Shown here in pieces: positions 20,296-38,776 of a stretch of 64,000 bases of DNA (position 1 is its first letter; every line of letters begins with the position of its first letter). Both the position numbers and the translations under genes were made by a program. This DNA is from Diplolepis rosae (lineage: Eukaryota; Arthropoda; Insecta; Hymenoptera; Diplolepididae). A model generated the notes under the pieces. That model was not told the origin of the DNA, ran no database searches, and worked only from the letters and a program-made list of their open reading frames with translations. The stretch lies in contig JAPYXD010000586.1 in NCBI GenBank assembly GCA_030998225.1, forward strand, positions 196,501 through 260,500, read 5' to 3'.

Positions 20296-20504
20296 TTTTT
20301 TTGTTTATAATATTAACTGTCACGTCCCGCGACGTATTTGAATGTATATAATACACACAGGCTGGTTTGAGTTAGAAATCTATGAGAAAATCGATAAAGG
20401 GGAATAGGGAGTAGGGGAAGTAGGGAGCAGTATAGGGCCCCTTCTCCTCTAAGAAGATATGACTACGTCACGATTTTCGCTGACCGTCAATTTGTATGAA
20501 AAAA

Positions 20505-20540
20505 TATAAAAGAAGCCCACACCAAGAGAAAGCAGTCAGT
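20505..20540 (+). promoter_or_regulatory. LTR core promoter
   Basis: TATAAAA at 20505-20511 is followed by an arthropod-type initiator TCAGT at 20536-20540. The initiator A is 33 nt downstream of the TATA start. The same arrangement occurs in the 3' LTR. Confidence 0.65.
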
Positions 20541-21026
20541 AAATTCTTCGTCTAGTTCGACACTTAAATTTTCCTTCGGATTTATAACCGGTCTCGCGAC
20601 AATAGTCCAGTGCGGTATTTCAATTTAACTTCGGAAATCTCTGAGTTTGAGATTAATAAAATTCGATTGGGACAATTTAAAATCCAAGTTCGGGAGTCGT
20701 AAAAGTCATCGTAGACTTGAATAGATCTTGTAAAGATCTTCGAACAGTGTCGTAAATTTGAATCGCCGCCCTTTACGGAATATACCTGTGCGGCCTATAA
20801 CTCCGTCTCTCTCACACACTTGGAATACACCTGTGGGGATCCAGTACTTACAACTCACCGCCGTGTGGATTAAACCTCAACACAACTTACGAATCATAAA
20901 GGTACCGAACCTCTCTCTCTCTATCTTTATTCTTTGTCTCTTTCTCACCTACGTACCAACCAGCCTGTGCCTACATTATATAAGAATTGTCTTAACGAAT
21001 GTATATCCGGAAATTTTAACCAGTAA

Positions 21027-21032
21027 AATAAA
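21027..21032 (+). terminator. LTR poly(A) signal
   Basis: AATAAA followed within 20-45 nt by T- and GT-rich sequence (TTGTATTATTTT, TTGTGTCTTTC). In the 3' LTR the same site (38636-38641) would end all viral transcripts. Confidence 0.55.
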
Positions 21033-21135
21033 TTCAATTTGTATTATTTTCATAATCATTGTGTCTTTCATTGACTTATCCTCATCCCTAAGCGAGGATC
21101 ATTCGATCCTAACTTAAAACGAGGAATCTTCGATC

Positions 21136-21144
21136 AAAGTAAGT
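21136..21144 (+). promoter_or_regulatory. Major 5' splice donor in U5
   Basis: AAA|GTAAGT with the intron starting at 21139 is a near-consensus donor placed just before the LTR end, upstream of gag. The same ATCAAAGTAAGTATT block is kept in the related LTR at 52918-53700 (minus) and in the fragment at 55884-55966. Splicing from here to the acceptors listed below would remove gag-pol. Confidence 0.6.
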
Positions 21145-21182
21145 ATTTACGTATTTGTGACGTAACATACTTCCTTTTTTTC

Positions 21183-21200
21183 TGGTGCATCGGCCGGGAA
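21183..21200 (+). other. Primer-binding site, tRNA-Gly type
   Basis: TGGTGCATCGGCCGGGAA lies 15 nt after the LTR. It is the complement of a tRNA 3' end TTCCCGGCCGATGCA-CCA, which I recognise as the conserved animal tRNA-Gly(GCC) 3' end. It would prime minus-strand DNA synthesis. Confidence 0.8.
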
Positions 21201-22270
21201 ACACAAGTCAATTGAAAATTAACGCATTGATTATTTCTAGTGAATAAATAAATGATTATGAAATATTATTTCAACTTGTAACTTGAAATTTCAATAAAAT
21301 AGATTTGTTAGATCACAAAGGGATTTGACCTTGAGGCTAACCTTAATGATTTAATAATCAAATCATTTCTTTGAAATTTTATAATTTATATAAATTGTAT
21401 AAAATAAAATAAGTTTGAAAAATCACGCAGGGATCTGACCTTGAGGCTAACCTAAGTGATTAAGTAACTTATCTTATTTAAAAAATTATTCTAATTTGTT
21501 AACTAAGTTTTGATTTAAGTTAAAACAAACAAAAAAAAACAGCACACGAGAGTATAAGTCCCTTTTGGGTACGTTGAACGGTCACCATTGATTACGATCA
21601 TTGGGTAGGGCAAAGTTCGAAGTGCTTGTGATTGTATTGTTTATAACTTTGATTTTAACTCTGTTAAGGAACAGAATATTTTTTTATTTGCAAAGATTGT
21701 CCAAGGATCTGAGCTTGAGCCTAACTTGTCCAGTCTAGAGAAGAATAAATTGTGCATAACTCGAATCTTATCTGATCCTTGTTATAAACAATTTTATTTA
21801 TTTAAACAAAAAAAAAACAATTTATAATTTATTAATTTAATAACATAGATTATTATAGTTTACAAAAGACACACGTGGTTGGTACAAAATAAATATACAT
21901 ATATATATATATTGTTATAATTTTAACAAATGTTTTATTTAACATTATAATTTTACAAAAAAATTTGAGCGATTATTTATTTATTTGAATGTTTTATAGA
22001 ATTATATTCTCATTTTGTTATTTTATTTCCCAATAAAAGAGTACAAATTTTAATTTTGTTATAAACAAATAAAAATAATTAAATAATTATTATTAATATC
22101 ATTTTTATGATTGGTTTTAAACTAAAATTATACTTTTACTAATTTCACTTTATTAACAAACAAAATTTTACATGTAGTTTTTTAAAATTGTTATAAACAA
22201 TTGATAATTAACAATAAATAATCTAAGATAACGCTCAATAAAAGGGAAACTGTAAAATTATAATGACTCA
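21201..22270 (+). other. Long leader with three related repeats
   Basis: About 1.07 kb of AT-rich untranslated RNA. A block GGATYTGACCTTGAGGCTAA occurs at about 21321-21344 and 21430-21453. A weaker version (GGATCTGAGCTTGAGCCTAA) occurs at about 21714-21733. Copy 2 is flanked by AATCAC and GTGATT, which can pair, and each full copy contains a CCT-TG-AGG mini-hairpin. Position suggests a packaging or translation element; this is inference. Confidence 0.55.
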
Positions 22271-24139
22271 ATGTCAAATTCAAATACCCCTGTAGAATCC
22301 GCCCAAAAGGTTATCACACGTAGTAAAGCCAAACAAGATAACCAACTCGCAAAAATTGTGGATCAGAATCAAATAGATTTCTTGAAACTAAAAAGATCAG
22401 GTAAAATCAAGGGAAATTTAGTCGATAATAAATACAAAGATATTTCAAACCCTTTTCCTGCTGAACAAGAATTAGATGACACTCTTCAGCTAGACGATTC
22501 ACGTTTTGACAAGACGCTAATTAATGATCAAAGCATATTAAGTGAAAATTCCAGTAAAACTAGCGGGTTTCATTCAAGTTTTTGTCAAGATTTAAGCATT
22601 GTGACAGGATCTAGTAATCAAGATCAAACTTTAACGAACGAATTATCTTATTTTGACGAATCTAATTTGCTAAGCTCAACGGTAATAACAATAGAAAACA
22701 AAACTTTGAAAGAAAAATTGAAAACCTCATTGGCACGCGACTCTCTAATTAGTAACAACGATAGCGACGACGACAAAAGCGATACAGAAGTCATAAATCA
22801 GGATAATCCCGTAATAGTAAGCAACGAAGAGATGGCCGTAGCCATACCTAACAGCCAGCAGGTATCCTTACGCGACGCGCTAGAGGTGGTCCCTTTGTTC
22901 GACGGAAGTAACCTCCCATTGTCCCATTTTATTGAGGGTTGCATGGAAGCAAAGGCAATGCTGCCGACACCTGCTGCCCAAGAAAATCTTGCACGTCTAT
23001 TGAGAGGTAAATTGTCTGGTGAGGCACGAAAATGTATTTTTGGGTCAACGTATGCAACAATAGAGGAATTAATAGAAAAATTGAAAAGAGTATATGCCCC
23101 TGCGAAAAGCGTATATCAATTGCAGGGAGAATTAGGTAATACATTTATGTGGGAAAGAGAAAATGTCCTTTCCTATGCTGCTAGAATTAAGGAAATTGCT
23201 GATAGAATAGAAGATGCTCACAGACTTAATAATGACGGTCAGGTAGATAATGCTTTCAAACAAAATTTAGAAAGAGATGTAATTCAATGTTTTATACGAG
23301 GTTTGCGTCCTGAGTTAGAAATTCGTGTAGAAGAAAAGGACACATTTAAGGAAGTAGTTAATGATACAATAGACATAGAACGAAGACTGGCTGCATCTTC
23401 TGCACTGCGAAGTAATAGAAATACGGATTATTTAAAAACCGAAGAATCAATTAATAATAATAAAAGTAATAAAACCACCCGATTCAACGTAGCACTTGAA
23501 AATAAAACTATTTGTTTAATTTGTAAAAAACCAGGTCACACAACTGAAAAATGTTTTCATTTAAGTAAAGCTCAAGATGCAGTTCTTAACAATAAACAAA
23601 AAAAATTTTTGCATCCTAACCAACAAGGATATAGTAATTTCAATGGTCAAAGAAGTAATAATAATAATAATTTTGCAAAAAACAATTACAATAATTTTCC
23701 AAATAACAATTTTTTAAGAAATAAAAATTATAATTTTAATAATAACAACAATCATTTTTTACAAAATAGAAATAACAATTATGGAAACAATAATAATAAT
23801 TTTTTACAACAAAGAGACAACAATAATAATAATTTTCCTAGAAATTTCTACAATAATAACAATAATGTTAATAATACTAATAGACTTTTGAATCCAGGAC
23901 AGTATAAAAACTTTAACTCAGGACAGTTTCAAAATCGAAATAAACCATATGAAAATAGATTTTTACAAAATAATAACACTCAACAAAATTCAAATTATAC
24001 TGAAATAATTTGCAATTACTGTAAACAACCCGGTCATTTAGTACGAGACTGCAAGATACGACCAAATAGCCAATCCCAAACAGCTAATCAGGAAAACTCC
24101 AAAGCTCTCCCCAGCACGGGTGCACTGAGGAAAGCATAA
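22271..24139 (+). CDS. gag: Gag polyprotein
   Basis: 622 codons, intact. Residues 1-190 are an acidic/serine-rich N-terminus. About 195-390 is the capsid-like region, including LSHFIEGCMEAKAML and a stretch ending TIDIERRLAA, typical of Ty3/gypsy Gag. Two zinc knuckles follow: CLICKKPGHTTEKC near residue 416 and CNYCKQPGHLVRDC near 580 (both C-x2-C-x4-H-x4-C). They are separated by an asparagine-rich segment of about 120 residues (runs of N with F, Y, R). Gag should form the particle and bind the RNA genome. The poly-N spacer between knuckles is unusual. The ATG at 22271 is the first in frame after the leader. Pol follows in the -1 frame, overlapping from 24088. Confidence 0.93.
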   Translation: MSNSNTPVESAQKVITRSKAKQDNQLAKIVDQNQIDFLKLKRSGKIKGNLVDNKYKDISNPFPAEQELDDTLQLDDSRFDKTLINDQSILSENSSKTSGFHSSFCQDLSIVTGSSNQDQTLTNELSYFDESNLLSSTVITIENKTLKEKLKTSLARDSLISNNDSDDDKSDTEVINQDNPVIVSNEEMAVAIPNSQQVSLRDALEVVPLFDGSNLPLSHFIEGCMEAKAMLPTPAAQENLARLLRGKLSGEARKCIFGSTYATIEELIEKLKRVYAPAKSVYQLQGELGNTFMWERENVLSYAARIKEIADRIEDAHRLNNDGQVDNAFKQNLERDVIQCFIRGLRPELEIRVEEKDTFKEVVNDTIDIERRLAASSALRSNRNTDYLKTEESINNNKSNKTTRFNVALENKTICLICKKPGHTTEKCFHLSKAQDAVLNNKQKKFLHPNQQGYSNFNGQRSNNNNNFAKNNYNNFPNNNFLRNKNYNFNNNNNHFLQNRNNNYGNNNNNFLQQRDNNNNNFPRNFYNNNNNVNNTNRLLNPGQYKNFNSGQFQNRNKPYENRFLQNNNTQQNSNYTEIICNYCKQPGHLVRDCKIRPNSQSQTANQENSKALPSTGALRKA

Positions 24140-27100
24140 ATCGAGAACCACTGGCATCCACTTCTAACGATCATACAACAACAACAATAAATATTTCAAA
24201 GTCCACTTCAATTCCATCAATTATAATATCAACGGAAGGTCTAAAAAATCCAACACACATGATGATTGATACTGGTGCTGCTCGAAATTTAATTAAACAA
24301 AAGGTTCTCAACCCTGAAGTACCCATAAATAGCCAAAACGTATTGAAACTTACAGGAATTAATGATTTACCACTTTACACGTTAGGACAGGTAAAAATAA
24401 ACATTTTTGGTTTTCCAACGATATTTAACATTATTCCCAATAAAGTCCCAGTAGAAGAAGATGGAGTATTGGGATCAGAATTTTTTCAAGATAATAGTGT
24501 GAATATAAACTATACTTCAAAATGCTTAGAAATTGAGAATCACTGTTACCCTTTTAAATCTACCAATACATTTACTATTCCAGCTCGAACAGTTATAACA
24601 TTTTATGTTAATATAAAAAATACAGAAAAGAGTGAAGGGTATGTACCTCGATTGCATATCCAAGATGGCGTCTACGTAGGTGACGCAGTTGTAAAAAATC
24701 ACAAGGGAAAAGCCTATTTAAAATTTGCAAACACAAATGAAATCCCAATTACATTATCCGTCCCATTAGTTAATTTAGAAGACTTTGAAGAACAAGAATG
24801 TTATAAACAAATTGAAAAATTAATTAATTTCAAACAAACAAATAACGAAGATTTATCAAGTAAAATATTAAATAACTTTTTAAAAACTGACAATTCTCTA
24901 ATTAACTCATGCAAATTTTATAATGTAACAGACGAAGACAGAGTAGAATGTATTAAAAAACTTCTTCGATTAGACCACTTAAATCAAGATGAATATGAAC
25001 ATGTAGAAAAATTAATTAAAAATAATGCAGACAGATTTCAAATCCCAGGAGAACCACTTGAAGCTACTAATGTATTACAACATTCAATTCCTACTGTAGA
25101 TGACGCTCCAATTTTTTCAAGACAATATAGATTTCCCCCAGTTCACAAGGAAGAAATTACAAGACAAGTCGATGAATTATTAAAAAATAAAATAATCAAG
25201 CCCTCACAATCACCATATAACACTCCAGTGTGGATAGTTCCTAAAAAACCTGATTCCCAAGGAAAAATAAAATGGAGAATGGTTCTTGATTTTCGTAAAT
25301 TAAATGAAAAAACAATTGGCGATTCGTATCCTTTACCTAATATAAACGATATACTTGATTCTCTAGGATCAGCAAAATATTTTTCAGTGTTTGATTTAGC
25401 TACCGGTTTTCACCATATAAAAATGAACCCAAAAGACTCTCATAAAACCGCATTTTCCACACCTCACGGTCATTACGAATTCGATAGAATGCCTTTCGGT
25501 TTAAAAACTGCACCAGCCACATTTCAGAGATTAATGGATTTAACATTAACTGGATTAATCGGAACGGAACTTTTTGTATATCTTGATGACATAGTTATAT
25601 ATGCAAATACTCTAGAAGAGCACGAAATTAAATTCAACAATTTAGCAGAAAGACTTAGAAAAGCAAATCTTCACTTACAACCAGACAAATGCGAATTTTT
25701 ACGACCTGAAGTAGGATATTTAGGTCATATAATTGATAAAAATGGAGTACGTCCAGATCCAAAAAAGATAATAGCTGTAAAAAACTTTCCAGTCCCAAAA
25801 ACACAGAAAAATGTTAAACAATTTTTAGGCTTAGCAGGATATTATAGACGATTTATTGATGGATTTTCAAAAATTGCAAGTCCTTTAAATCAACTTCTAA
25901 AAAAAGATATACCTTTTAATTGGACAGAAAAACAACAAGCAGCTTTCGATATTTTAAAAGCAAAGTTATGTGAAGAACCACTTTTACAACGACCTGATTT
26001 TTCTCAACCCTTTATACTCACAACAGATGCCTCAGGATTTGCAATAGGAGGTATTTTATCACAAGGTAAAATAGGTAAAGATAAACCAATAGCATATGCT
26101 TCACGTAGTCTAAGTGATACTGAGAAAAAATATGATACATATGAAAAAGAAGCTCTTGCTATAATATTTTGTGTAACTCATTTTCGTCCTTATTTGTATG
26201 GAAGAAAATTTACCTTAGTGACTGATCACAAACCTCTAGTTTGGTTTCAAAATTCTAAAGACCCGTGTTCACGAGTATCACGTTGGAGATTAAAACTCGC
26301 AGAATATGATTTTGATGTAATTTACAAAGCAGGAAAAATGAATGTAAATGCAGATGCTCTCTCAAGAAACCCTATTGATGATAGCCAGGAAAAATCAAAA
26401 TATTTACAAGTTGATGACAATGATACTTTCATGACTTCTAAAGAAAAAACGTTTTCCAAGAAAACTTTTACAAGAAATAAACAAGAAAACTCTAAAAATA
26501 AGGTAAGACCTTTAAAACGAAAAAACTTGAATCCAGGAATGGTACCAGACGACGTAGATCATTTTAGCGAAATTCCAGAAGCCCAAATATTAAATATTCA
26601 CACAAAAATTCCAGAATTTTTACAAGAATTCCTTAGTGAAGAATCATTTAGTGAGATTGGTAAGAATATTTTAAAATACACAAATTTATTCAAAAATATG
26701 GCTTCAAGACTTATTTTTATGACAATATTTTTATTAAGTCCAATGTTTTCAAAAAAATACGAAAATTTATCATGGAAAACTATTACTACAAGAGCTCAAA
26801 AGAGAATAGAGCAAGATAAAGCAAAAAATATGAATCGAAATGAAACTCAAGAAAAATTAGACGAAAATTTTTCTTCTAAACCTCTTGTGAAAAAATCACG
26901 AGGTAGGCCAAGAAAAAATCTACTTACAAATTTAAAAAATATCCCCTCCCAAACAAAAAGAAAGAGAGGTAGACCAAGAAAACAAATATTTGAAAACGAA
27001 TTACCAGAAATAAATATGCAAAAGCGAAGCCGAACAAAAGTAGAATCAGATTCCGACTCTGATCCTGATTATTTAGATAATTTGAAACAAACTCAAGCAA

Positions 27101-27471
27101 AAAACATAAAGAAGAAGAAGAATGCCAAGAAGCCAAAAAATGTTAATGAATTTGAAAGTGAAGAAAGTGAAGAAAGTGAGAATTATTTTTCAACCTCAGA
27201 AGATGAAATCAACGACATTGAAACCTCACACGAAGGAAACAATGAAGAAAATTATGAAGAAAATTTGGAAGATAACTTTGAAGAAGATTTTGACGAAAAT
27301 TTCAAAAAGAATTTTGAACAGAATTTTGAAGAACATTTTGGAGACGATCTTGAGGAAAATTTTGAAGAGAAGTTTGAAGAAAACCAAGAAGAAAAATTGG
27401 AAGAAGAATTTGAAGAGCCTTATTTTGAAAAAAAATTTGAGATTAAACCGAAGATCTCAAATAAATTGTGA
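24088..27471 (+). CDS. pol: Pol: protease, reverse transcriptase, RNase H, AT-hook tail
   Basis: The frame opens at 24088, 52 nt before gag stops, in the -1 phase, so -1 frameshifting is the likely expression mode; the first Met is at 24259. Residues counted from that Met: protease DTGA at 4-7; RT from about 290 to 520 with FDLATGFHHIKM, MPFGLKTAPATFQRLM and YLDD at 441-444; RNase H from about 585 (TTDASGFAIGG) to 710, ending NVNADALSRNP. Then comes an insert not usual in this family: two AT-hook motifs (RGRPRK at about 881 and 903) and a very acidic Glu/Phe/Asn-rich tail from about 960 to the stop. Integrase continues in another frame. Confidence 0.9.
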   Translation, partial: SGKLQSSPQHGCTEESINREPLASTSNDHTTTTINISKSTSIPSIIISTEGLKNPTHMMIDTGAARNLIKQKVLNPEVPINSQNVLKLTGINDLPLYTLGQVKINIFGFPTIFNIIPNKVPVEEDGVLGSEFFQDNSVNINYTSKCLEIENHCYPFKSTNTFTIPARTVITFYVNIKNTEKSEGYVPRLHIQDGVYVGDAVVKNHKGKAYLKFANTNEIPITLSVPLVNLEDFEEQECYKQIEKLINFKQTNNEDLSSKILNNFLKTDNSLINSCKFYNVTDEDRVECIKKLLRLDHLNQDEYEHVEKLIKNNADRFQIPGEPLEATNVLQHSIPTVDDAPIFSRQYRFPPVHKEEITRQVDELLKNKIIKPSQSPYNTPVWIVPKKPDSQGKIKWRMVLDFRKLNEKTIGDSYPLPNINDILDSLGSAKYFSVFDLATGFHHIKMNPKDSHKTAFSTPHGHYEFDRMPFGLKTAPATFQRLMDLTLTGLIGTELFVYLDDIVIYANTLEEHEIKFNNLAERLRKANLHLQPDKCEFLRPEVGYLGHIIDKNGVRPDPKKIIAVKNFPVPKTQKNVKQFLGLAGYYRRFIDGFSKIASPLNQLLKKDIPFNWTEKQQAAFDILKAKLCEEPLLQRPDFSQPFILTTDASGFAIGGILSQGKIGKDKPIAYASRSLSDTEKKYDTYEKEALAIIFCVTHFRPYLYGRKFTLVTDHKPLVWFQNSKDPCSRVSRWRLKLAEYDFDVIYKAGKMNVNADALSRNPIDDSQEKSKYLQVDDNDTFMTSKEKTFSKKTFTRNKQENSKNKVRPLKRKNLNPGMVPDDVDHFSEIPEAQILNIHTKIPEFLQEFLSEESFSEIGKNILKYTNLFKNMASRLIFMTIFLLSPMFSKKYENLSWKTITTRAQKRIEQDKAKNMNRNETQEKLDENFSSKPLVKKSRGRPRKNLLTNLKNIPSQTKRKRGRPRKQIFENELPEINMQKRSRTKVESDSDSDPDYLDNLKQTQAKNIKKKKNAKKPKNVNEFESEESEESENYFSTSEDEINDIETSHEGNNEENYEENLEDNFEEDFDENFKKNFEQNFEEHFGDDLEENFEEKFEENQEEKLEEEFEEPYFEKKFEIKPKISNKL

Positions 27472-28273
27472 AAAAATCGATAAAGATCATGATAATTATA
27501 ATCGCCCACCCCCAGAACCTCCTCCTATAAACTCTCAAACAGAAAAAATTATAACAAGGAAAAATTTAGTTGAATGTCGCGATCAATTAACTATGCGAAA
27601 AGATAATTATGCATATTTTGTTACAACAAATGGAACTCCTCGCGACAACGGATCAAAAACTTTAGAAAAACGTGAAATTTTACCAAAATTTAAAAATTTA
27701 CAAAAAGGGATAGCAAAAGAGATTAAAAAAGGAAACTACTACCATTTTGCACTTCCAATTGAAGAAGAAACTAAAGACAATTTATCCGAAACATTAAATA
27801 ATATAAAATTATCAATATACTCATTACATGAATTATCTCAAAATCTGAAGTTACGGTCAATTAGTATTTCTAAAACTTCCAGAATTAATCATATACTTTG
27901 GGAAGAAGTGAAATCAATTTTTGACTCAATTTTTTCAAATTCAACTACAAAAATTATAGTTTGCAATGGAATAACGCAATATCCAACAAAAGAACAACGA
28001 ACTCATTTAATCGAAGAAGCTCATTCTTCAGCATTAGGAGGCCATAAAGGCGTCACAAAAACTTATAGTCGAATTCGCCAAAAATTTTTTTGGGAAAATA
28101 TGAAAGTAGACATTCAAAAATATATTCAAGGCTGTTTACAATGTCAACTGAAAAAATTAATCAGAGTCAAAACAAAAAACCCTATGGTAATCACTGACAC
28201 ACCCACTACTGCTTTTGAAAAAATATCAATGGACATTGTTGGTCCACTACCTGAAACAAAATCTGGTAACTTA
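27440..28273 (+). pseudogene. pol: Integrase N-terminal half (interrupted)
   Basis: Reads on from pol in the +1 frame after about 27440-27471. A linker (PPPEPPPINS) leads to the HHCC zinc domain (HSSALGGHKG, then CLQCQLKK) and the first catalytic aspartate (ISMDIVGPLPE). The frame then runs into the mariner insertion at 28276. The same phase is open upstream to 27122, but there it gives only a basic shadow of the acidic repeats, so the true entry is by a frame change near the TGA at 27469. This is either an indel or programmed +1 shifting. Confidence 0.85.
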
Positions 28274-30020: not shown

Positions 30021-30302
30021 ATGGATCAAATTCATCGCAAACGCATAGATGATCTCATTGAAATAGTTCCCTGTTTTATCGACATGGTAGCTCTCTGGCC
30101 ATACTTAATTCAAACTGGAATTTTTAACCAAGACGACTGTAATATTCCCACATGGAGCAAAAACCTAAACAATCCAGATACAATAAAAGACATTTTTTCA
30201 ACAATCAAAACAAGAGGACCAGACGCATACAAAAACTTGATTATCAGTTTACGCCTATCAGATCATATTGTCATAGCTGACATGTTGGATATTATAGACT
30301 AA
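30021..30302 (+). CDS. CARD-domain protein
   Basis: 93 codons, essentially one domain. The pattern fits a caspase recruitment domain: N-terminal charged helix (HRKRIDDLIEIVPC), a hydrophobic helix leading to LIQTGIFNQDD, and the diagnostic IKTRGPDAYKNLIISLRLSD followed by IADMLDI. CARDs form six-helix bundles that pair with CARDs of initiator caspases and adaptors (in insects Dronc and Dark). A free-standing CARD in a provirus is best read as a decoy that blocks apoptosis or immune signalling; that is inference. It is the first gene after pol, in its own frame, preceded by a splice-acceptor-like site. Its composition matches its neighbours. Confidence 0.8.
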   Translation: MDQIHRKRIDDLIEIVPCFIDMVALWPYLIQTGIFNQDDCNIPTWSKNLNNPDTIKDIFSTIKTRGPDAYKNLIISLRLSDHIVIADMLDIID

Positions 30303-30444: not shown

Positions 30445-32007
30445 ATGGGATTACGAGGCTTCCTTTTGGCACTGCTCATTTGCAAATTCAACTATATAAC
30501 AACAGTCTACGCCATCATAGGATTCGATTGCGGTTCAAATCAATCAAATATTACGACATTATCTTTACTAGAGGTAGGAGAATGTGATCTACCTCGATCT
30601 CAAGTACATGTTGAAAGAGTTTATATACAACTTTTACAATTAACTGGATTTTCAAATACAAAAGTAATACAATGCAAAATAGAAATTCGACGCGCCATCT
30701 CTCATTGTGGTATGCATTCTCACAGTTCCATAGTTGCAAATGGCCACAGTGAATATATACATGATGTTACACGAGATCAATGTAATCAAATGCACACAAT
30801 AGGAACATTTTTAGTAACCCCTTCTCTTCAGATATCAAAGTTAAAAGTAAATGAAACTTCATTTCATAGCGTTACTTTAGCAGGTTCTGTAACACCTAAT
30901 GGAGACTGTACTGGTACACAATTTTCTGACCCATATGGAACATGGAATAATGTCGTAGTCCAAGCAATATTCAAAATAACTTTACAAGAACATTACGCGA
31001 CTATTCATTTAAATTCAAATAAAATTCAATTAGGATCTGGAATAATATGCACACTTTCAGACACATTCTGTACAGACGTAGAATATGGACAGACATTCTG
31101 GGACACATTACCTAATGACGTATGTAATTTTAACAAATATGAAATTATTTATGAAGGACCAGCAAATAAAACATATGACAACACGACAGACATTTCTGAA
31201 ACCTTGTATTCTTTAACGACTGAAGATATAACCTTTGTACTGGCTGAAAAAACAAGAAAACCGGTTTGCAGTTACGTTTTAATACAAACTGAACATCCAA
31301 AATTATTAATTTTTGAAACCAGACCTGGGAATTCATTTTTAGAAAATAAACATTTAGAAGTTCAAAATATGGACATTTTCACATACGTCAACTCTAAATT
31401 TATATATGTAGAACGACACATACGCACTGAAGTAAATAGACTTTATCACGATGTTCTTACTCAACGATGCATACTTGAACAGCAAGTTTTTAGAAATACA
31501 TTAACCTTAGCAACCCAATCACCAGACGAATTTGCATATCATTTAATGAAAGGCCCAGGATATATGTCAGTAATTGCAGGAGAAGTAGTACATATCGTAA
31601 AATGTATACCGGTTGAAGTAAAATATCGCAAAACTGAAGAATGTTATCTACAACTACCAATATTTAGAGGAAATCAATCCTTTTTCCTTTCTCCACGAAC
31701 TCATATATTAACAAAATCAGGTATCCAAACAAATTGCAATTCTTTCCTTCCACCAATGTACCTTTTTGGAGAAACCTGTTACAAATTACTTCCAAATCCT
31801 GTCGAATCCATAGCACCGACTATAATTAAACCTCTCACAAAAGCAACCTGGAAATACACAAATCCTTCATCCTTAGCAACAAGTGGCATTTATTCTCAAT
31901 CTGACCTTGATAAGCTACGAGATCATATAATGTTCCCAGCAGAAAAACCAATGATTTTAAATTCCTTAGCTAGAGAAATAACAGGACATGCGACTATTAA
32001 TCAATGA
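30445..32007 (+). CDS. env: Chuvirus-like envelope glycoprotein, ectodomain
   Basis: 520 codons. A signal peptide (about residues 1-23, hydrophobic LLALLICKF) is followed by the GFDCG...NITTLSLLEVGECD start. This DCG / N-x-T / C arrangement marks the glycoproteins of chuviruses and of insect retroelements that captured them. There are many paired cysteines and several N-glycosylation sites. Glycoproteins of this group are regarded as class III fusogens related to rhabdovirus G. No membrane anchor lies in this ORF: it ends at a TGA (32005-32007) followed two codons later by a TAA, and the anchor is in the next ORF in the same frame. This copy is therefore probably nonfunctional unless the stops are read through. 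Confidence 0.75.
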   Translation: MGLRGFLLALLICKFNYITTVYAIIGFDCGSNQSNITTLSLLEVGECDLPRSQVHVERVYIQLLQLTGFSNTKVIQCKIEIRRAISHCGMHSHSSIVANGHSEYIHDVTRDQCNQMHTIGTFLVTPSLQISKLKVNETSFHSVTLAGSVTPNGDCTGTQFSDPYGTWNNVVVQAIFKITLQEHYATIHLNSNKIQLGSGIICTLSDTFCTDVEYGQTFWDTLPNDVCNFNKYEIIYEGPANKTYDNTTDISETLYSLTTEDITFVLAEKTRKPVCSYVLIQTEHPKLLIFETRPGNSFLENKHLEVQNMDIFTYVNSKFIYVERHIRTEVNRLYHDVLTQRCILEQQVFRNTLTLATQSPDEFAYHLMKGPGYMSVIAGEVVHIVKCIPVEVKYRKTEECYLQLPIFRGNQSFFLSPRTHILTKSGIQTNCNSFLPPMYLFGETCYKLLPNPVESIAPTIIKPLTKATWKYTNPSSLATSGIYSQSDLDKLRDHIMFPAEKPMILNSLAREITGHATINQ

Positions 32008-32013
32008 ATATAA

Positions 32014-32475
32014 TTGACAAATTTATTTAAACAAGAAGTAATTGATAAAATTGCTGAATCAGCTTGGGGTAGATTTTGGACAGTTTTTACAAATTTCGGT
32101 ACTACTAGTGCAGGTATAATTGGATTAATTATAATAATTAGAGGGATCAAATTAATAGCAGATACCATTATTCATGGTTATGCATTGCATAGATTATTTG
32201 GATGGTCTCTCCATTTACTAGGCGCCTTCTGGGATTCGGTCACTAACCTTTTGTTACACTTAGGTACCAACCGACCTGCTGGACCTCCCGCTGAGAGCCA
32301 TCAACCACTGCTTACAGCTTCAGCACCACAAAACTCTATAGAGGAAACTAAAAGTTCATCTCCTAACGAAAATACCAATTCAGGTAAAGATCATAATAGT
32401 ACGAAGACTACTCTTTATCCTCACTCTGAACTAAAAGAAGAACTTAGTAGATCACATTATTCAATCCGAATCTAA
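32014..32475 (+). pseudogene. env: C-terminal stem, membrane anchor and tail of the first envelope
   Basis: About 153 codons in the same frame as the ectodomain, separated from it by two stop codons and lacking a nearby ATG (the codon at 32014 is TTG). A membrane segment GIIGLIIIIRGIKLIA lies at about residues 34-50, then a second hydrophobic stretch (LFGWSLHLLGAFW), then a hydrophilic serine/threonine-rich tail. This is the expected anchor of the glycoprotein. An independent small membrane protein is less likely. Confidence 0.65.
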
Positions 32476-32486: not shown

Positions 32487-33218
32487 ATGTCGCATGTTCC
32501 TTTCACAACCTTACTAAACAAAATTATTCAACAAAGAGGAGATCCACCCCTCATTTATGAGATACTCATTGAACAAACCAATAATAATGAATGTCTATTT
32601 CACGTTAATTTACAATATAACAATTATATAATAATGAATAGTGGCAAAAATAAAGAAAACGTAAAGCAAAAGGTAGCACAAAATTTATATAATGCCTTAA
32701 TTAATGAATCAAAGGAAACAAATCAAAACGTCCAACCGAATTCTATTGGTAAAAATTTCAAAAAATTAAACGAAATTTGCACTCAAAATAAAATCGAATA
32801 TCCAAAATATACAGTATTACGAGTAAAAACTTCATCAAAAAACTCAACATACATAGCAATTTGTTTTATTAATGATATCAAACGAATAGGAATTGGAAAC
32901 ACAATAAAAACAGCAATGGATTTCGCAGCTATAAAAACGATAAATTCTCTTTTGCAAAAAGATAAAAAATGTGAAGTAAATTTAATAAACTCACTAGAAC
33001 ATTTGCATGTTACAATCCAAGAATCACTTATAAATGATCCAAAACCTTCAACGAGTGGTCAGATAACAAAACCTAATATTAACAGTCGTTTTAAAAATAT
33101 AAATCCTTATAAAATAAAAAGAAATAATACTTCTACTACATCGCCTTTTTCTGGAAAAAGCTTTAAGAAATGTTTTAAATGCGGATATAGACCCCCCAAT
33201 CAGTACAATAAATTCTAA
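32487..33218 (+). CDS. Protein with two double-stranded-RNA-binding domains
   Basis: 243 codons. dsRBD 1 spans about residues 5-72 (FTTLLNKIIQQ, then YEILIEQ, then a KQKVAQNLYNALI helix). dsRBD 2 spans about 90-160 (FKKLNEICTQNKIEYPKYTV, then TAMDFAAIKTINSLL). Both show the alpha-beta-beta-beta-alpha layout with diverged final helices. A Ser/Asn-rich tail ends in CFKCGY, which looks like the start of a zinc knuckle of the type complete in the two sister genes. dsRNA binding suggests shielding viral dsRNA from Dicer-2, that is suppression of RNA interference; this is inference. It begins 11 nt after the envelope tail stop. Confidence 0.75.
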   Translation: MSHVPFTTLLNKIIQQRGDPPLIYEILIEQTNNNECLFHVNLQYNNYIIMNSGKNKENVKQKVAQNLYNALINESKETNQNVQPNSIGKNFKKLNEICTQNKIEYPKYTVLRVKTSSKNSTYIAICFINDIKRIGIGNTIKTAMDFAAIKTINSLLQKDKKCEVNLINSLEHLHVTIQESLINDPKPSTSGQITKPNINSRFKNINPYKIKRNNTSTTSPFSGKSFKKCFKCGYRPPNQYNKF

Positions 33219-33255: not shown

Positions 33256-33840
33256 ATGGAGCATTATTATGATGAGCCTACCCACGTGCGAAGTTACAAA
33301 AAAAAGATATGTAGAACAGACTCTCTGGGACTTTTAAACCACGTGGAAATTTTGAGAAATTTTACGATAAAATATGGATTACCGTTACCACAATACATCG
33401 TTTATCCTGATCCAAATTCAAAAACCAAATCATTTTTTCTTGCTCAAGTTAATACAAACGATCATTTTGCTGTACAAGCAGGTCCTACAAGCGAGTTAGC
33501 CGAAAATAGAGCTGCTTTAAAATTACTACAAATATTAATAAGATCTTATGATCTTTGCGATGAGGATTTTTATAATAATAAATGTAAAGAAACAAAAAAA
33601 ACGAAGAATCAAAGTGTTCAAACTGATCCAAGACCAAAATTAGTATCATGGAAAAATTCATGTAGATATTGTAACACTCAAATGCATGCTACAAAAGAGT
33701 GCCGTAGACGGAATGTTTTTAAAGCTGATAAATCAACACAAGTTCCCCCTCCACTTCCACCACGAAACTCCTCAACATTTAGTAATCTATTTTCCCCTTT
33801 TTTCCAAAAAACTTCTAGACCTAAATCCAACCATATGTAA
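33256..33840 (+). CDS. dsRBD and zinc-knuckle protein
   Basis: 194 codons. One dsRBD at about residues 25-95: LLNHVEILRNFTIKYGLPLPQYIV, then FFLAQV, then the canonical helix SELAENRAALKLLQIL. It is followed by a zinc knuckle CRYCNTQMHATKEC (C-x2-C-x4-H-x4-C) at about 135-148. A proline-rich VPPPLPPRN near the C-terminus looks like an SH3-type ligand. The dsRBD plus retroviral knuckle layout is shared with 37019-37468. Likely role: dsRNA sequestration. The C-terminal part overlaps an open phase of the next gene, but that gene's own ATG is 58 nt downstream of this stop. Confidence 0.8.
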   Translation: MEHYYDEPTHVRSYKKKICRTDSLGLLNHVEILRNFTIKYGLPLPQYIVYPDPNSKTKSFFLAQVNTNDHFAVQAGPTSELAENRAALKLLQILIRSYDLCDEDFYNNKCKETKKTKNQSVQTDPRPKLVSWKNSCRYCNTQMHATKECRRRNVFKADKSTQVPPPLPPRNSSTFSNLFSPFFQKTSRPKSNHM

Positions 33841-33856
33841 ACATCCAATTTATCCA

Positions 33857-33882: not shown

Positions 33883-33898
33883 CCATTCGAGAAGCATA

Positions 33899-35680
33899 AT
33901 GAAATTCCTATACCAACCACCTTATGGCGTATACTTGATGCTAATTCTGTTTTTCACTTCTAAAGCAGATAACTTGTATATCAATTCACAATTTTATCAC
34001 TCATCTGGTATTTATTTTGAACCAATTTCAAAAATACGTCTATTTTCCGAAAATTATAATTTTATCTCTTATTTTGACATTTTGCAACCAGAAAACTTAA
34101 AATATAAAATAGTAGATATATCTCACAAACTTTATGAACATTGTATACTCACAAATATTGCAAACAACTGTAATATATATAATCACCACACTCAGCTTGA
34201 ATTTATGAAAGAACGTATAAATTATTTTCTCGGAGAAATTTCATTTATATCCAGACAAGCTCATAACATCACTAAAATTCCCAAAAATAGTGATCCATTT
34301 TTACATCAAATTCAAAAAGTTCTTCTACAATCAAAAATAAGACAAAAAACTTCTCTTTATTGGCCTAAAGAAAATTTGTTCCTACTCCCAAATCCATTTT
34401 CTGAACAACTTGAAAACCTTTCATCCAATCTCAACAACGTTACGATGTACAAAGACTGGCATAAATCAGAAATTTTCCCAAATTTGCACATTTATAGAAT
34501 TCTCGCAGCAAATTGGCTAATGGACTTGCATGAAATATCCCGATCCTTTCTATCACTCCTAACACAACTTACGGAAGCTATAACCCATGCCGCTACAAAT
34601 TTATGGCACCCCATGCTGCTTCCAGATACCTTTCTAGACTTCAAATCCAACAAAGAAGATCCTCACCTTCCAACGTCTCTTTTTTCTATGGTCATTCCAT
34701 TTTCTAAAATAAGATACTTTACTTTCAATAACTACTTAATTTTTACTATGACCATACCAATTCCATCTTCTGAAGAATTTCAAGTATTTAAAACACATTC
34801 AACCCCTATACATTTTGACTTCAACACTGATTATATTATACCTATATTCATAAAACCTCAATTTTCTTATATCGCGTTTTCTCCAAATAACGAATCTTAC
34901 TTCACAACAAATGAAAATTTCGTCGCGTCATGCCACCAAAATGGACTTCAAAATTTTTGTCACCCTCCTCATTCCATATACAGTACTCAAAATAATCCTA
35001 TTTGCGAAACATCAATGTTTATAAAATCCCAACCGTATAAATGTAAAACATTCATAAGTTTCAATGAATATCCTTTTTTAACACCACTGTTGTCACACCG
35101 TGGATGGCTTTATTCAACTATTCTTCCTAAGCAAATCTTTTTATCTTGCTCCAAAAATTCCAAAACCCTTATTACTCTTCAAGGAATAGGAATTTTACAA
35201 ATAGAATCTGACTGTAATTTGGACTCATCAATTCCATACTATAATATTAAAAATTACCCAAAAATAATGGATAACTCAATTCCACTTAGTAAATCGACCA
35301 CTTCTCTTGAAATAATTTCTCCCTTCTTATATAATATGTCGATCACAGAACCTCACTTGTTAAAAAACGTATTACATCTTTTTCATAAAAAAGATGACAT
35401 GCTTATATCGACTTTTGAAAGTCATGTTTTTCTACTCACAAAATATGCTAATATTCAGAAAATTATCCCATCTATTTTTAATTCTAGTGCACATAAAATA
35501 TATATAGCACATACTATAGTTACTTTTCTTATAATAATTATTCTATTAATAATACTAATTAAAATTCAAAAAATTTCAAAAAAAACTAATAAAAATATAA
35601 ATGAAATTAAACTAGATCAGAAAACTCCTCTTAGCCTATCAACAAAACCTCTTCTAAGTGACCTATCATTCAAATTTTAA
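33899..35680 (+). CDS. env: Second envelope, errantivirus/baculovirus-F type
   Basis: 593 codons from the ATG at 33899, chosen because a signal peptide (YLMLILFFTSKA) follows and a splice acceptor precedes; the phase is open to 33686 but that part overlaps the previous gene. The start of the mature protein (SSGIYFEPISKIRLFSENYN) has the pattern seen at the start of errantivirus Env and baculovirus F-type fusion proteins (class I). A membrane segment IVTFLIIIILLIILIKI lies at about residues 541-558, with a cytoplasmic tail of about 35 residues. No clear furin site (RxxR) is evident, so the cleavage state is open. It is unrelated to the first envelope. Confidence 0.75.
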   Translation: MKFLYQPPYGVYLMLILFFTSKADNLYINSQFYHSSGIYFEPISKIRLFSENYNFISYFDILQPENLKYKIVDISHKLYEHCILTNIANNCNIYNHHTQLEFMKERINYFLGEISFISRQAHNITKIPKNSDPFLHQIQKVLLQSKIRQKTSLYWPKENLFLLPNPFSEQLENLSSNLNNVTMYKDWHKSEIFPNLHIYRILAANWLMDLHEISRSFLSLLTQLTEAITHAATNLWHPMLLPDTFLDFKSNKEDPHLPTSLFSMVIPFSKIRYFTFNNYLIFTMTIPIPSSEEFQVFKTHSTPIHFDFNTDYIIPIFIKPQFSYIAFSPNNESYFTTNENFVASCHQNGLQNFCHPPHSIYSTQNNPICETSMFIKSQPYKCKTFISFNEYPFLTPLLSHRGWLYSTILPKQIFLSCSKNSKTLITLQGIGILQIESDCNLDSSIPYYNIKNYPKIMDNSIPLSKSTTSLEIISPFLYNMSITEPHLLKNVLHLFHKKDDMLISTFESHVFLLTKYANIQKIIPSIFNSSAHKIYIAHTIVTFLIIIILLIILIKIQKISKKTNKNINEIKLDQKTPLSLSTKPLLSDLSFKF

Positions 35681-36018: not shown

Positions 36019-36426
36019 ATGATTCCGACTGCGGCAGAACCGATCGTGTTCCACTCAGGACCTGTGGACGGTGTATGTCCACAGGATTATCCAATCACAT
36101 ATGGACATTTAATAAATAGTTTTTGTTTCGACTTAGAAGAGTCAACCTTATTCATTTATTACAGTCAGCAAACAACAAAGAAATTTTGCCAATTTTGCTT
36201 CGAAAAATTACCAATTCCAGAACAAAATGAATACGAATTCTGTACCTCATGGCACTCAGTTTGTAAAATACAATGCGTTAATATGAATTGTAACGGTTGT
36301 AGGGAAGCATTAATAACGCCACGCTGTAGGGCAATCGACTGTAAAGGTTGTACTGAGCAATTCTTAAAAAATAAAATGCAACTTCAATTAGGAAACGAAG
36401 TTATAGTTGAAAATGTTTTTCGATAA
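36019..36426 (+). CDS. Cys-rich (zinc) accessory protein A
   Basis: 135 codons, no family recognised. The N-terminal half holds PVDGVCPQDYPITYGHLI, then a C-x2-C pair (FCQFCFEKL). The C-terminal half is dense in Cys (CTSWHSVCKIQC, NCNGCREALITPRC, DCKGCTEQFL), probably binding two or more zinc ions. The final module C-x2-C-x-E-x(n)-C-x2-C-T-E is shared with protein B at 36548, so the two are probably paralogues. A RING or treble-clef fold is possible, but I cannot assign ligase function. A homologue is kept in the minus-strand relative at 55149-55554, with the PVDGVCPQ block conserved. Confidence 0.7.
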   Translation: MIPTAAEPIVFHSGPVDGVCPQDYPITYGHLINSFCFDLEESTLFIYYSQQTTKKFCQFCFEKLPIPEQNEYEFCTSWHSVCKIQCVNMNCNGCREALITPRCRAIDCKGCTEQFLKNKMQLQLGNEVIVENVFR

Positions 36427-36543: not shown

Positions 36544-36547
36544 AAAA

Positions 36548-36910
36548 ATGCTGCCGCATGATTTTGAATCCATTCAAGCCGAAAATCCAGAAAACGACGA
36601 ACAGTACTACCAACCGTATATCGATCAAATAATTATGAAACATTTTTGTTGTTACTCTCCAGAAAACGAAATATATCAGAATACTTTAGATCAAAAATTC
36701 ATATGTAAAGAATGTTACAGATTTAAAATTACCTTTTTTGAATCAGAAATATCTGTACCTTTCCTTAACCGCCACATTGTAACCACGGATCTTAACGGAT
36801 TAAAATGTTCTGTCTGCGAAGAGCAAATTTTTTTCATACGTTTCAGAGCAGACCAATGTTTTCTTTGCACTGAATATCTCTTTGAGTTAGCAAACGCGGA
36901 AAACGAATAA
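36548..36910 (+). CDS. Cys-rich (zinc) accessory protein B
   Basis: 120 codons, no family recognised. Cysteines: FCCYS near residue 37, FICKECYRF near 57, then LKCSVCEEQIFF and QCFLCTEYLF. The last two make the C-x2-C ... C-x2-C-T-E module also present at the end of protein A. The middle segment (ITFFESEISVPFLNRHIVTTDL) is conserved in the broken homologue at 54654-55102. It could be a zinc ribbon acting in protein or nucleic-acid binding. Function unknown. Confidence 0.7.
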   Translation: MLPHDFESIQAENPENDEQYYQPYIDQIIMKHFCCYSPENEIYQNTLDQKFICKECYRFKITFFESEISVPFLNRHIVTTDLNGLKCSVCEEQIFFIRFRADQCFLCTEYLFELANAENE

Positions 36911-36997
36911 CTTATAATCCATATACATAATTATTAACAATAATAATAACTAATTTCCATTTATATCAAATTAAATCACAAACAACTCAAATAGATA

Positions 36998-37009
36998 ATT
37001 CTTTTGCAG
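36998..37009 (+). promoter_or_regulatory. 3' splice site before the third dsRBD gene
   Basis: ATTCTTTTGCAG with AG at 37008-37009, 9 nt before the ATG at 37019; this argues for 37019 rather than an upstream start. Confidence 0.55.
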
Positions 37010-37018
37010 ATAAGGACA

Positions 37019-37468
37019 ATGGCAATGCAACAAAGAGATTTGACAAAGGGTAGCGCAGTACAAATACTTAATGAAATAAGTATTGAATATGATTTTTCAA
37101 TACCAGAATACACAGTAAAATCTCTTGGAATACATCAAGAACTACCGCCATTCGAGGCAACTTGTGAAATTTTAAAAAATAATGTAACCTATGCTTGTGT
37201 TGGAGAACCTGCGTCCCAAAAGAAAGTAGCAAAACAAAATGCAGCAGCTAGAGTCTTGGAAACACTTTCCACGAAATATATATTTTTAGAAGAAAAGTTA
37301 GAAAAATGCTTAATAACAGAATCTAAATTTTATAATATAAGCGATAAAAACAATAAAGAAGCTTTACAAAAATGGACTAATTCATGTGAAAGGTGTTTTC
37401 AAAGAGGACATTTAGCTCGTAACTGCCGCAACCCTCTACGTAATAAAAAATATAAAAATAACCCTTAA
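37019..37468 (+). CDS. dsRBD and zinc-knuckle protein, 3'-most gene
   Basis: 149 codons from the ATG at 37019; a TTG at 37004 in the same frame lies across the acceptor and is not used. dsRBD at about residues 10-80: AVQILNEISIEYDFSIPEYTV, then FEATCEI, then the canonical SQKKVAKQNAAARVLETLS helix, with the KKxAK lysines that contact the RNA backbone. A zinc knuckle CERCFQRGHLARNC follows at about 122-135 and a basic tail. Same layout as 33256-33840. A homologue with the knuckle and dsRBD core survives at 54128-54516 (minus). Probably a dsRNA-binding suppressor of RNA interference; inferred from domain only. Confidence 0.82.
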   Translation: MAMQQRDLTKGSAVQILNEISIEYDFSIPEYTVKSLGIHQELPPFEATCEILKNNVTYACVGEPASQKKVAKQNAAARVLETLSTKYIFLEEKLEKCLITESKFYNISDKNNKEALQKWTNSCERCFQRGHLARNCRNPLRNKKYKNNP

Positions 37469-37915
37469 AAAATATTTTCACTAATCTACTACATTATAAA
37501 AATTATATTTTATATATTACAGCATGTTATTTATAATTTACAAATATAAAATACCCCATTCACGTATAAAAAATATTAATGTATTTAGTTATATAACAAA
37601 ATAAATCATTGTAACCTTATATTAATACTAAGTTCAAACTATTTTGAAAAAAAAAAAAAAAAAAAAAACTATGTAATAATTTATAACAAGACAATATAAA
37701 TTTTTATCCAAAAAATATGTTAATATTTTAATTTATCAAATTGTGAAAATGCAAAAAAAAATACAAATTGTAGAACAAACGTAGAAATGAATGTTATATT
37801 TATCATTCAGATATTGTTATCAGAAAAAGAGTTGAATGTATTTCTTCAAAACAAAAAAAATGTATTCTTCTACCGAAGTTTCGATCGCGGATCGTTAACT
37901 CCCCGCGCTCGAACT
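37469..37915 (+). other. 3' untranslated region with A-run
   Basis: AT-rich, no coding. An A-run of about 23 nt lies at 37646-37668. The end (CGAAGTTTCGATCGCGGATCG) is GC-richer and leads into the polypurine tract; a similar block follows the LTR at 53711-53750 (minus). Confidence 0.6.
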
Positions 37916-37926
37916 GAGGGGGGAGG
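37916..37926 (+). other. Polypurine tract
   Basis: GAGGGGGGAGG directly abuts the 3' LTR. The expected primer for plus-strand DNA synthesis. Confidence 0.85.
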
Positions 37927-38776
37927 TGTCACGTCCCGCGACGTATTTGAATGTATATAATACACACAGGCTGGTTTGAGTTAGAAATCTATGAGAAAAT
38001 CGATAAAGGGGAATAGGGAGTAGGGGAAGTAGGGAGCAGTATAGGGCCCCTTCTCCTCTAAGAAGATATGACTACGTCACGATTTTCGCTGACCGTCAAT
38101 TTGTATGAAAAAATATAAAAGAGGCCCACACCAAGAGAAAGCAGTCAGTAAATTCTTCGTCTAGTTCGACACTTAAATTTTCCTTCGGATTTATAACCGG
38201 TCTCGCGACAATAGTCCAGTGCGGTATTTCAATTTAACTTCGGAAATCTCTGAGTTTGAGATTAATAAAATTCGATTGGGACAATTTAAAATCCAAGTTC
38301 GGGAGTCGTAAAAGTCATCGTAGACTTGAATAGATCTTGTAAAGATCTTCGAACAGTGTCGTAAATTTGAATCGCCGCCCTTTACGGAATATACCTGTGC
38401 GGCCTATAACTCCGTCTCTCTCACACACTTGGAATACACCTGTGGGGATCCAGTACTTACAACTCACCGCCGTGTGGATTAAACCTCAACACAACTTACG
38501 AATCATAAAGGTACCGAACCTCTCTCTCTCTATCTTTATTCTTTGTCTCTTTCTCACCTACGTACCAACCAGCCTGTGCCTACATTATATAAGAATTGTC
38601 TTAACGAATGTATATCCGGAAATTTTAACCAGTAAAATAAATTCAATTTGTATTATTTTCATAATCATTGTGTCTTTCATTGACTTATCCTCATCCCTAA
38701 GCGAGGATCATTCGATCCTAACTTAAAACGAGGAATCTTCGATCAAAGTAAGTATTTACGTATTTGTGACGTAACA
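37927..38776 (+). repeat. 3' LTR (850 bp)
   Basis: Same length and ends as the 5' LTR, with one base difference seen (38123). The poly(A) signal is at 38636-38641. The flank continues with the TTAAC duplication. Confidence 0.97.

What the first reader, a model, noticed from the sequence alone, without database searches (positions are those of the whole stretch)
20318..38776. Provirus with eight extra genes: CARD, two envelopes, three dsRBD genes, two Cys-rich genes
Seen: one pair of near-identical LTRs encloses gag, pol and a further 7.7 kb of same-strand ORFs, each separate and each with recognisable domain or Cys pattern. Known: Ty3/gypsy elements carry at most one env and rarely any accessory gene. 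Inference: this is a complex insect endogenous retrovirus with a host-counter-defence module, a layout I do not know from any described group. It is the best candidate for an undescribed system in this window.
Basis: partly seen in the sequence, partly recalled or inferred. Interest (0 to 1): 0.95.

Follow-up and report, generated by a model that had tools for sequence, protein, structure and literature searches.

The report
Retrovirus-like element with eight extra genes
A retrovirus-like element found many times over in one (likely insect) genome carries two different viral-type envelope genes plus six further genes, three of them predicted to bind double-stranded RNA, which would help it evade the host's antiviral defences.

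Summary
Two 850-bp LTRs (one mismatch) with target duplication TTAAC enclose gag, pol and eight same-strand accessory ORFs: CARD-like, class III (Monjiviricetes-type) env1, dsRBD1, dsRBD2, F-type env2, Cys1, Cys2, dsRBD3. Of 40 scored gag-region matches in the same genome, 29 continue into this block and 11 are a short form without it. Twelve of 14 copies with both ends read show exact 4-bp target duplications, all different: no mis-assembly. Variants shared between copies hold relatively fewer amino-acid changes and stops than singletons (N/S/stop 38/43/1 against 185/76/18; p = 1.6e-4), so the block was selected while it replicated. Splice-acceptor-like sites precede the accessory ATGs, with one donor-like site in U5. 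I read it as a complex, Ty3/gypsy-type endogenous retrovirus with separately spliced accessory genes. The counter-defence role is inferred, not shown. The window's own copy is broken (mariner-like insert in integrase, stops in env1). The short form keeps a relic of env2's acceptor next to pol, so env2 is probably the ancestral envelope and CARD-env1-dsRBD1-dsRBD2 a later insertion.

The parts
20318..21167 (+). 5' LTR, 850 bp; TSD TTAAC at 20313-20317
21139..21144 (+). splice-donor-like AAA|GTAAGT in U5, the only GTRAGT between 20318 and 24200
   Evidence: use as a donor is inferred
21183..21200 (+). primer-binding-site-like stretch 15 nt after the LTR (tRNA-Gly assignment recalled, not tested)
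   Evidence: sequence
22271..24139 (+). gag, 622 aa, two CX2CX4HX4C knuckles
24259..27471 (+). pol: RT and RNase H (protease-like DTGA at the start, by eye)
27122..28276 (+). integrase, N-terminal part (H2C2)
28274..29032 (+). mariner-like insert of about 757 bp with terminal inverted repeats and a DUF4817 ORF; not in 17 other copies; boundaries approximate
29122..29799 (+). integrase, C-terminal part
30021..30302 (+). CARD-like gene, 93 aa; acceptor-like CAG 5 nt upstream (weak)
30445..32475 (+). env1, class III / Monjiviricetes-type fusion glycoprotein; two in-frame stops in this copy; acceptor-like CAG 2 nt upstream
32487..33218 (+). dsRBD1, 243 aa, two dsrm stretches and a C-terminal CxxC; only an AAG, no YAG, before the ATG
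33256..33840 (+). dsRBD2, 194 aa, dsrm below cut-off, C-terminal zinc knuckle
33899..35680 (+). env2, F-type (Baculo_F), C-terminal transmembrane stretch, no RxxR; acceptor-like CAG 16 nt upstream (best of 332 AGs)
36019..36426 (+). Cys1, 135 aa, 12 Cys, three CxxC
36548..36910 (+). Cys2, 120 aa, 8 Cys, three CxxC; weakly similar to Cys1
37019..37468 (+). dsRBD3, 149 aa, dsrm plus CX2CX4HX4C knuckle; acceptor-like CAG 9 nt upstream
37927..38776 (+). 3' LTR with purine tract directly before it; TSD TTAAC at 38777-38781
52918..55554 (-). diverged second copy of the 3' part in the same order: Cys1 55554-55158, Cys2 55009-54666, dsRBD3 54518-54128, 3' UTR, LTR

Best explanation
This is a Ty3/gypsy-type endogenous retrovirus, repeated at many places in the same genome, whose long form carries eight accessory genes that are predicted to be expressed from separately spliced mRNAs and would serve cell entry (env1, env2) and evasion of host defence (three dsRBD genes, CARD). 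Shown: the anatomy, the recurrence of the gene order, the independent insertions and the selection signal. Inferred: (1) the full-length RNA is spliced from the U5 donor to an acceptor before each accessory gene, as in complex retroviruses. (2) Env1, the class III glycoprotein, is the working fusion protein; env2, the F-type protein without a furin-type site, is the older envelope, now with an attachment or assembly role. (3) The dsRBD proteins coat double-stranded element RNA and keep it from Dicer-type nucleases. (4) The CARD protein caps or decoys a host CARD assembly such as the Dark/Dronc apoptosome. (5) The short form, with gag and pol but no accessory gene, is a derivative that spreads inside the cell or uses the long form's particles.
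For: Anatomy. Same order in other copies: of 19 distinct copies covered by 10-kb stretches, 14 carry the block (one with an internal env1-env2 deletion, one with a foreign insert, one with a Cys2/dsRBD3 deletion, one cut in dsRBD3, one seen only from dsRBD2 on) and 5 are short; all 40 matches typed give 29 long, 11 short. Exact 4-bp TSDs, all different, in 12 of 14. Selection: shared variants N/S/stop 38/43/1 against singletons 185/76/18, Fisher p 1.6e-4; for the six non-envelope genes alone 15/13/0 against 70/22/7, p 0.03; against the diverged copy dsRBD3 dN/dS 0.24, Cys1 0.11 with dS near saturation. Splicing: acceptor scores (generic weights, recalled) before the eight ATGs exceed those of 126 other ATGs (0 of 100,000 draws as high); weight-free test p 3.5e-5, and 8.6e-5 against 152 minus-strand ATGs; env2's acceptor is recognisable in the short form and a TAG is kept before Cys1 and Cys2 in the diverged copy. 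dsRBD paralogy. CARD: 28 of 40 relatives match Pfam CARD at E <= 1, best 1.3e-5. Order in public contigs: P0038 runs from env1 into dsRBD1, P0088 from CARD into env1.
Against: No transcript, protein or particle data. dsRBD1 has no YAG before its ATG; CARD and Cys2 acceptors are weak (rank 58 and 103 of 332), and dsRBD3's start is not recognisable in the diverged copy. CARD and dsRBD2 fall below Pfam cut-offs; the CARD model is poor (pLDDT 60) and its PDB matches, though mostly CARDs, are not significant. Profile searches of the PDB found no dsRBD or CARD. dsRBD2 is open in only 4 of 12 copies and env2 in 7 of 13. The selection signal gene by gene is thin: CARD has no shared variant, Cys1 one, and Cys2 and dsRBD3 five each with N above S. 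11 of 40 copies do without the block. Functions (2)-(4) rest on domain identity alone.
Confidence: 0.6

Rival explanations
1. The dsRBD-plus-zinc-knuckle proteins serve the element's own RNA (export of unspliced RNA, packaging or translation, Rev-like), not counter-defence; the rest of the architecture is as described.
For: dsRBD2 and dsRBD3 end in the same CX2CX4HX4C knuckle type as Gag; a retroelement with many acceptors needs a way to export unspliced RNA, and Cer1 of C. elegans encodes such a factor (PMC10309623, seen in the listing with title and abstract start only).
Against: Three copies of a dsRNA-binding fold is more than a single export factor would need (inference); dsRBD3 carries a KKxAK-type stretch (motif recalled), which fits dsRNA binding.
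Confidence: 0.25
2. The accessory genes are passengers: captured by chance, carried by the active lineage and now decaying, so that the long form succeeds despite them.
For: 11 of 40 copies lack the block; many single frames are broken.
Against: Shared variants are depleted of amino-acid changes and stops; dN/dS 0.24 and 0.11 against a diverged copy; CARD and dsRBD1 relatives keep their sequence in other public contigs, although many of those are broken too.
Confidence: 0.07
3. Assembly artefact or nested insertions that merely look like one element.
For: Nested insertions do occur here (mariner-like insert; one copy inside another's pol).
Against: 29 of 40 matches carry the block, on many contigs; different 4-bp TSDs; both LTRs near-identical.
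Confidence: 0.02

Closest known systems
Errantiviruses (env-bearing gypsy elements of insects)
   Same: gypsy-type gag-pol, F-type envelope after pol
   Different: Those known to me carry one env and no dsRBD, CARD or Cys genes (recalled); here a second, class III envelope and six other genes. The 2025 survey of 289 errantiviruses (cited in PMC13172572, passages read) is not held.
Anakin, BEL/Pao elements with a chuvirus glycoprotein in mosquitoes (PMC7642597, passages read)
   Same: Captured Jingchuvirales-type glycoprotein within LTRs; forms with and without it coexist
   Different: BEL/Pao, one glycoprotein, no accessory genes mentioned in the passages read. For Gypsy, PMC10084718 (passages read) reports association of such glycoproteins in Hymenoptera but no clear capture.
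gypsy elements with type III glycoproteins (PMC13172572, figure legends among passages read)
   Same: Class III envelope in a gypsy element
   Different: No two-envelope element or accessory block in the passages read
Bdelloid LTR retrotransposons with extra ORFs (PMC5408684, passages read)
   Same: LTR elements that capture non-env ORFs
   Different: The passages read describe one ORF3 of varying type, not a set of eight genes
Complex retroviruses (lentiviruses, spumaviruses; recalled)
   Same: Several accessory genes from multiply spliced mRNAs, some against host defence
   Different: Retroviridae of vertebrates; I know of no such accessory gene set there
Group I alphabaculoviruses with GP64 plus an F-like protein (recalled)
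   Same: Class III fusion protein together with an F protein lacking a furin site
   Different: Large DNA viruses; parallel only

Membership tests
Ty3/gypsy LTR retroelement (Metaviridae) | Paired TG...CA LTRs with short TSD | tested here: met
Ty3/gypsy LTR retroelement (Metaviridae) | RT-RNaseH before integrase; gag with CCHC | tested here: met
Ty3/gypsy LTR retroelement (Metaviridae) | RT groups with Ty3/gypsy in a tree | not tested
   no reference set at hand
Errantivirus | F-type envelope downstream of pol | tested here: met
   (Baculo_F 63.6 bits, cut-off 24.1); short-form relic puts its acceptor next to pol
Errantivirus | Furin-type RxxR site in the F envelope (recalled) | tested here: not met
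   window copy only
Errantivirus | Single envelope, no accessory genes (recalled) | tested here: not met
Monjiviricetes-type fusion glycoprotein (env1) | Pfam PF24664 above cut-off | tested here: met
   678.3 and 115.1 bits against 27
dsRNA-binding domain proteins | Pfam dsrm above cut-off | tested here: inconclusive
   met by dsRBD1 and dsRBD3, not by dsRBD2 (18.3 of 23), which is similar to dsRBD3 at E 3e-9
CARD | Pfam CARD above cut-off; six-helix death fold | tested here: inconclusive
Viral suppressor of RNAi | Blocks siRNA silencing | not testable with these tools
   needs an assay
Troyka retroelements | CG...CG termini and 3-bp TSD (PMC12440569, abstract and first of five parts read) | tested here: not met
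   TG...CA and 4-bp TSD

The most novel reading that the evidence does not exclude
A lineage of complex retroviruses evolved independently in invertebrates, from a gypsy-type element: it replaced its F envelope with a class III one, kept the old one as a helper, and assembled a spliced counter-defence cassette (three dsRBD RNAi suppressors, a CARD decoy, two zinc-binding regulators) analogous to lentiviral accessory genes, while shedding an accessory-free short form that lives alongside it.
Probability: 0.35. Interest if true: 0.93.

Novelty: new variant of a known kind. Interest (0 to 1): 0.82.

Why it matters
Arthropod LTR elements with an envelope are known, but a set of eight selected, apparently separately spliced accessory genes in one is, as far as my nine searches reach, undescribed. 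If the dsRBD and CARD proteins act as proposed, it would be a retroelement that answers host RNA silencing and cell-death pathways with dedicated proteins, testable gene by gene. The coexistence of long and short forms would also let one ask directly what infection-related genes cost and gain a retroelement.

Tried and rejected
Mis-assembly: rejected by recurrence and TSDs. Troyka: rejected by termini and TSD length. Env1 as two genes: rejected, both parts match one Pfam model in order and 8 of 12 other copies are open throughout. The DUF4817 ORF as a ninth accessory gene: rejected, it lies in a mariner-like insert missing from 17 other copies. Structure of Cys1: model useless (pLDDT 44); PDB profile search without a convincing hit. 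CARD structure: low confidence; the designed-repeat hits 8g8i and 8eoz are taken as chance. Viral contigs: no relative of dsRBD1, CARD or the first env1 ORF (the tool may leave out the window's own genome); env2 was not searched there (one search was a frame error and was not repeated). PDB searches with env1 and env2: nothing convincing. Rfam and tRNA scans of the window: none. Naming the host by symbiont 16S and a search for the diverged subfamily failed because the genome search did not complete.
Full report
CHECK. The window lies in a 758-Mb genome of 428 contigs. The two LTRs (20318-21167, 37927-38776) differ at one of 850 positions, begin TG and end CA, and are flanked by TTAAC. Between them lie gag, pol and a further block of ORFs on the same strand. 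Pfam gives a zinc knuckle for gag; RT and RNase H for pol; integrase H2C2 and, just at its cut-off, an integrase C-terminal domain; CARD (19.5 bits, cut-off 23.9); Monjiviricetes fusion glycoprotein (678 and 115 bits on two consecutive ORFs); dsrm (54.8 bits, two stretches); dsrm (18.3, below the cut-off of 23); Baculo_F (63.6); and dsrm (31.1). Cys1 and Cys2 match nothing above a cut-off, but have three CxxC pairs each and a short mutual similarity (E 0.001 for the single comparison).

THIS COPY IS BROKEN. The integrase gene holds an insert of about 757 bp with terminal inverted repeats and a DUF4817 helix-turn-helix ORF, of mariner type by my reading. It is absent from all 17 other distinct copies in which both sides were read. 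env1 has two in-frame stops; 8 of 12 other copies are open throughout env1 and so lack them.

RECURRENCE. The gag-region search returned 40 scored matches (94-100% identity) of 3060 candidates. In one search, 20 stretches of 10 kb covered 19 distinct copies (L026 is the same place as L011): 14 carry the block and 5 are short. Of the 14, L016 has lost part of env1 to env2, L015 has a foreign insert between env2 and Cys1, L023 a deletion across Cys2/dsRBD3, L010 is cut in dsRBD3 with no LTR found behind it, and L019 was seen from dsRBD2 on. Stretches of about 1 kb typed 18 more (12 long, 6 short) and one more long (L064); the last is a long copy whose pol is split by another long copy (L065, L066). 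With the window itself: 29 long, 11 short. The 20 copies typed from short stretches were not read along the whole block. A separate search with the 3' block gave 40 scored matches (96-100%) of 1408 candidates. By hand, 12 of them (window included) lie on the same contig and strand as a match: ten at 13.3-13.8 kb, the window at 14.5 kb because of its insert, and one at 16.3 kb (L015/L045, foreign insert).

INDEPENDENT INSERTIONS. Both ends were read for 14 copies (12 long, 2 short). Twelve have an exact 4-bp duplication, all different (CTTG, AATC, AAAG, GTAT, ATAA, CAAT, GCTA, GTTA, TCAA, ATCT, TTTG, CACG); the window has 5 bp; one copy has three of four letters. For three further copies (L010, L018, L020) one end was not found; for three short ones (L024, L025, L027) the 5' end was not fetched. 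The LTR pairs of five copies differ at 0, 1, 1, 4 and 9 positions, so these insertions are recent.

SHORT FORM. The five short copies read through the tail share the gag region at 95-99% with the long form, a pol end 94-95% identical (89%, with a deletion, in L024), a tail of about 1.5 kb with no + strand ORF above 84 aa, and the last 71 bases before the LTR. The tail holds one relic: 65 bases in L009, 74% identical to window 33857-33919, with branch-point-like CTAAT, pyrimidine tract, CAG and the bases after it, about 110 nt past the pol stop; all five show the match. This is the env2 acceptor. I infer that env2 once stood directly behind pol and that CARD, env1, dsRBD1 and dsRBD2 were added between them in the long form, while the short form lost its env. 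The near-identity of gag and LTRs between some short and long copies suggests recombination between the forms.

SELECTION. Among up to 14 long copies plus the window, with the window's letters as reference and only two-state sites counted, variants in the eight accessory genes with one state in a single copy are N 185, S 76, stop 18; those with both states in at least two copies are N 38, S 43, stop 1 (Fisher p 1.6e-4). The neutral expectation is about 3.4 N per S (which used another reference and gave 200/82/20 against 43/46/1). Singletons are closer to neutral decay after insertion; shared variants have passed through replication under selection. The envelopes give most of the counts (115/54/11 against 23/30/1, p 0.002); the six other genes together show the same ratio with less weight (70/22/7 against 15/13/0, p 0.03). 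Gene by gene the counts are too small to test (CARD no shared variant, Cys1 one). Frames open, k of n copies covering at least 95%: CARD 12/13, env1 8/12, dsRBD1 9/12, dsRBD2 4/12, env2 7/13, Cys1 13/14, Cys2 9/13, dsRBD3 9/12. Some single-base indels may be assembly errors.

DEEPER COPY. On the minus strand of the same window, Cys1 (55554-55158), Cys2 (55009-54666), dsRBD3 (54518-54128), a 3' UTR and an LTR follow in the same order. dsRBD3: dN 0.118, dS 0.485, ratio 0.24; Cys1: 0.258/2.26, ratio 0.11, dS near saturation; Cys2 is too diverged to score and holds stops. The UTR is 73% identical, dsRBD3 85%. Nothing upstream of Cys1 from the block was found in the window for this copy, so it says nothing on the envelopes, CARD, dsRBD1 and dsRBD2.

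EXPRESSION. Before the eight accessory ATGs an AG ends 1-16 nt upstream (best-scoring AG within 25 nt). With a generic acceptor score (weights recalled), env2's is the best and env1's the third of 332 AGs in the block, and the eight together exceed every one of 100,000 draws from 126 other ATGs. Without weights: a YAG lies within 20 nt before 7 of 8 against 45 of 126 control ATGs, and the pyrimidine content before it is higher (Mann-Whitney p 3.5e-5; 8.6e-5 against 152 minus-strand ATGs). dsRBD1 has no YAG; CARD and Cys2 are weak. The diverged copy keeps TAG before Cys1 and Cys2 although the bases around have changed; dsRBD3's start is not recognisable there. The only GTRAGT in 20318-24200 is AAA|GTAAGT in U5. 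I infer one spliced mRNA for each accessory gene; no transcript was available.

ELSEWHERE. The protein search lists 39 relatives of dsRBD1, 51 of CARD and 20 of Cys1 (the window's own protein or an identical one included) on short, unnamed public contigs. Some fuse neighbours by deletion or read-through in the same order: CARD-env1 (P0088), env1-dsRBD1 (P0038), dsRBD1-dsRBD2 (P0036), dsRBD1 to env2 (P0015). They may come from the same or a close species. No relative of dsRBD1, CARD or the first env1 ORF turned up in IMG/VR.

LITERATURE. Nine searches returned no LTR element with two envelopes, dsRBD or CARD genes, as judged from listings, abstract starts and the passages read. PMC7642597 (passages) describes Anakin, a BEL/Pao element with a chuvirus glycoprotein. 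PMC10084718 (passages) finds Gypsy fragments beside such glycoproteins in Hymenoptera but no clear capture by Gypsy. PMC13172572 (passages, legends) mentions type III glycoproteins in gypsy elements. PMC5408684 (passages) describes single extra ORFs in rotifer elements. PMC12440569 (abstract and first of five parts) describes Troyka. The survey that could hold relatives (Chary and Hayashi 2025) could not be read.

VERDICT. A real, selected, multi-copy element with an unusually rich accessory block. What it works like: a complex retrovirus. What it is: a Ty3/gypsy-type endogenous retrovirus related to errantiviruses by its F envelope; errantivirus membership is not claimed, since the single-envelope layout and the furin site are not met and no RT tree was made. 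The counter-defence function is the likeliest reading of the domains but untested.

Noticed in passing
window 3850-8714, - strand: A second gypsy-type element (gag, RNase H, integrase; IN about 35% identical to the finding's); no accessory gene was seen there.
   Followed up: partly
window 57771-60010, - strand: Remains of a third gypsy-type gag-pol, with LTR-like fragments at 55884-55966 and 61806-61904 nearby.
   Followed up: no
window 28274-29032: Mariner-like insert with terminal inverted repeats and a DUF4817 ORF inside the integrase gene.
   Followed up: yes
L065 and L066 (G000:C230): A long copy has inserted into the pol of another long copy; the nested one (L011) has the 4-bp duplication AATC.
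   Followed up: yes
window 1273-2549; 12206-12393: Irregular repeats, part of them 166 nt apart, and a 94-bp tandem pair with 99% identity.
   Followed up: no
window 16661-17967 and 57121-57400: Long inverted repeats (93% over 316 nt; 98% over 128 nt with a 24-nt spacer), possibly foldback elements.
   Followed up: no
L019 612-4843: Beside one long copy lies a related element whose gag is 88% but whose RT region is 97% identical to the window's, so further, mosaic subfamilies exist.
   Followed up: no
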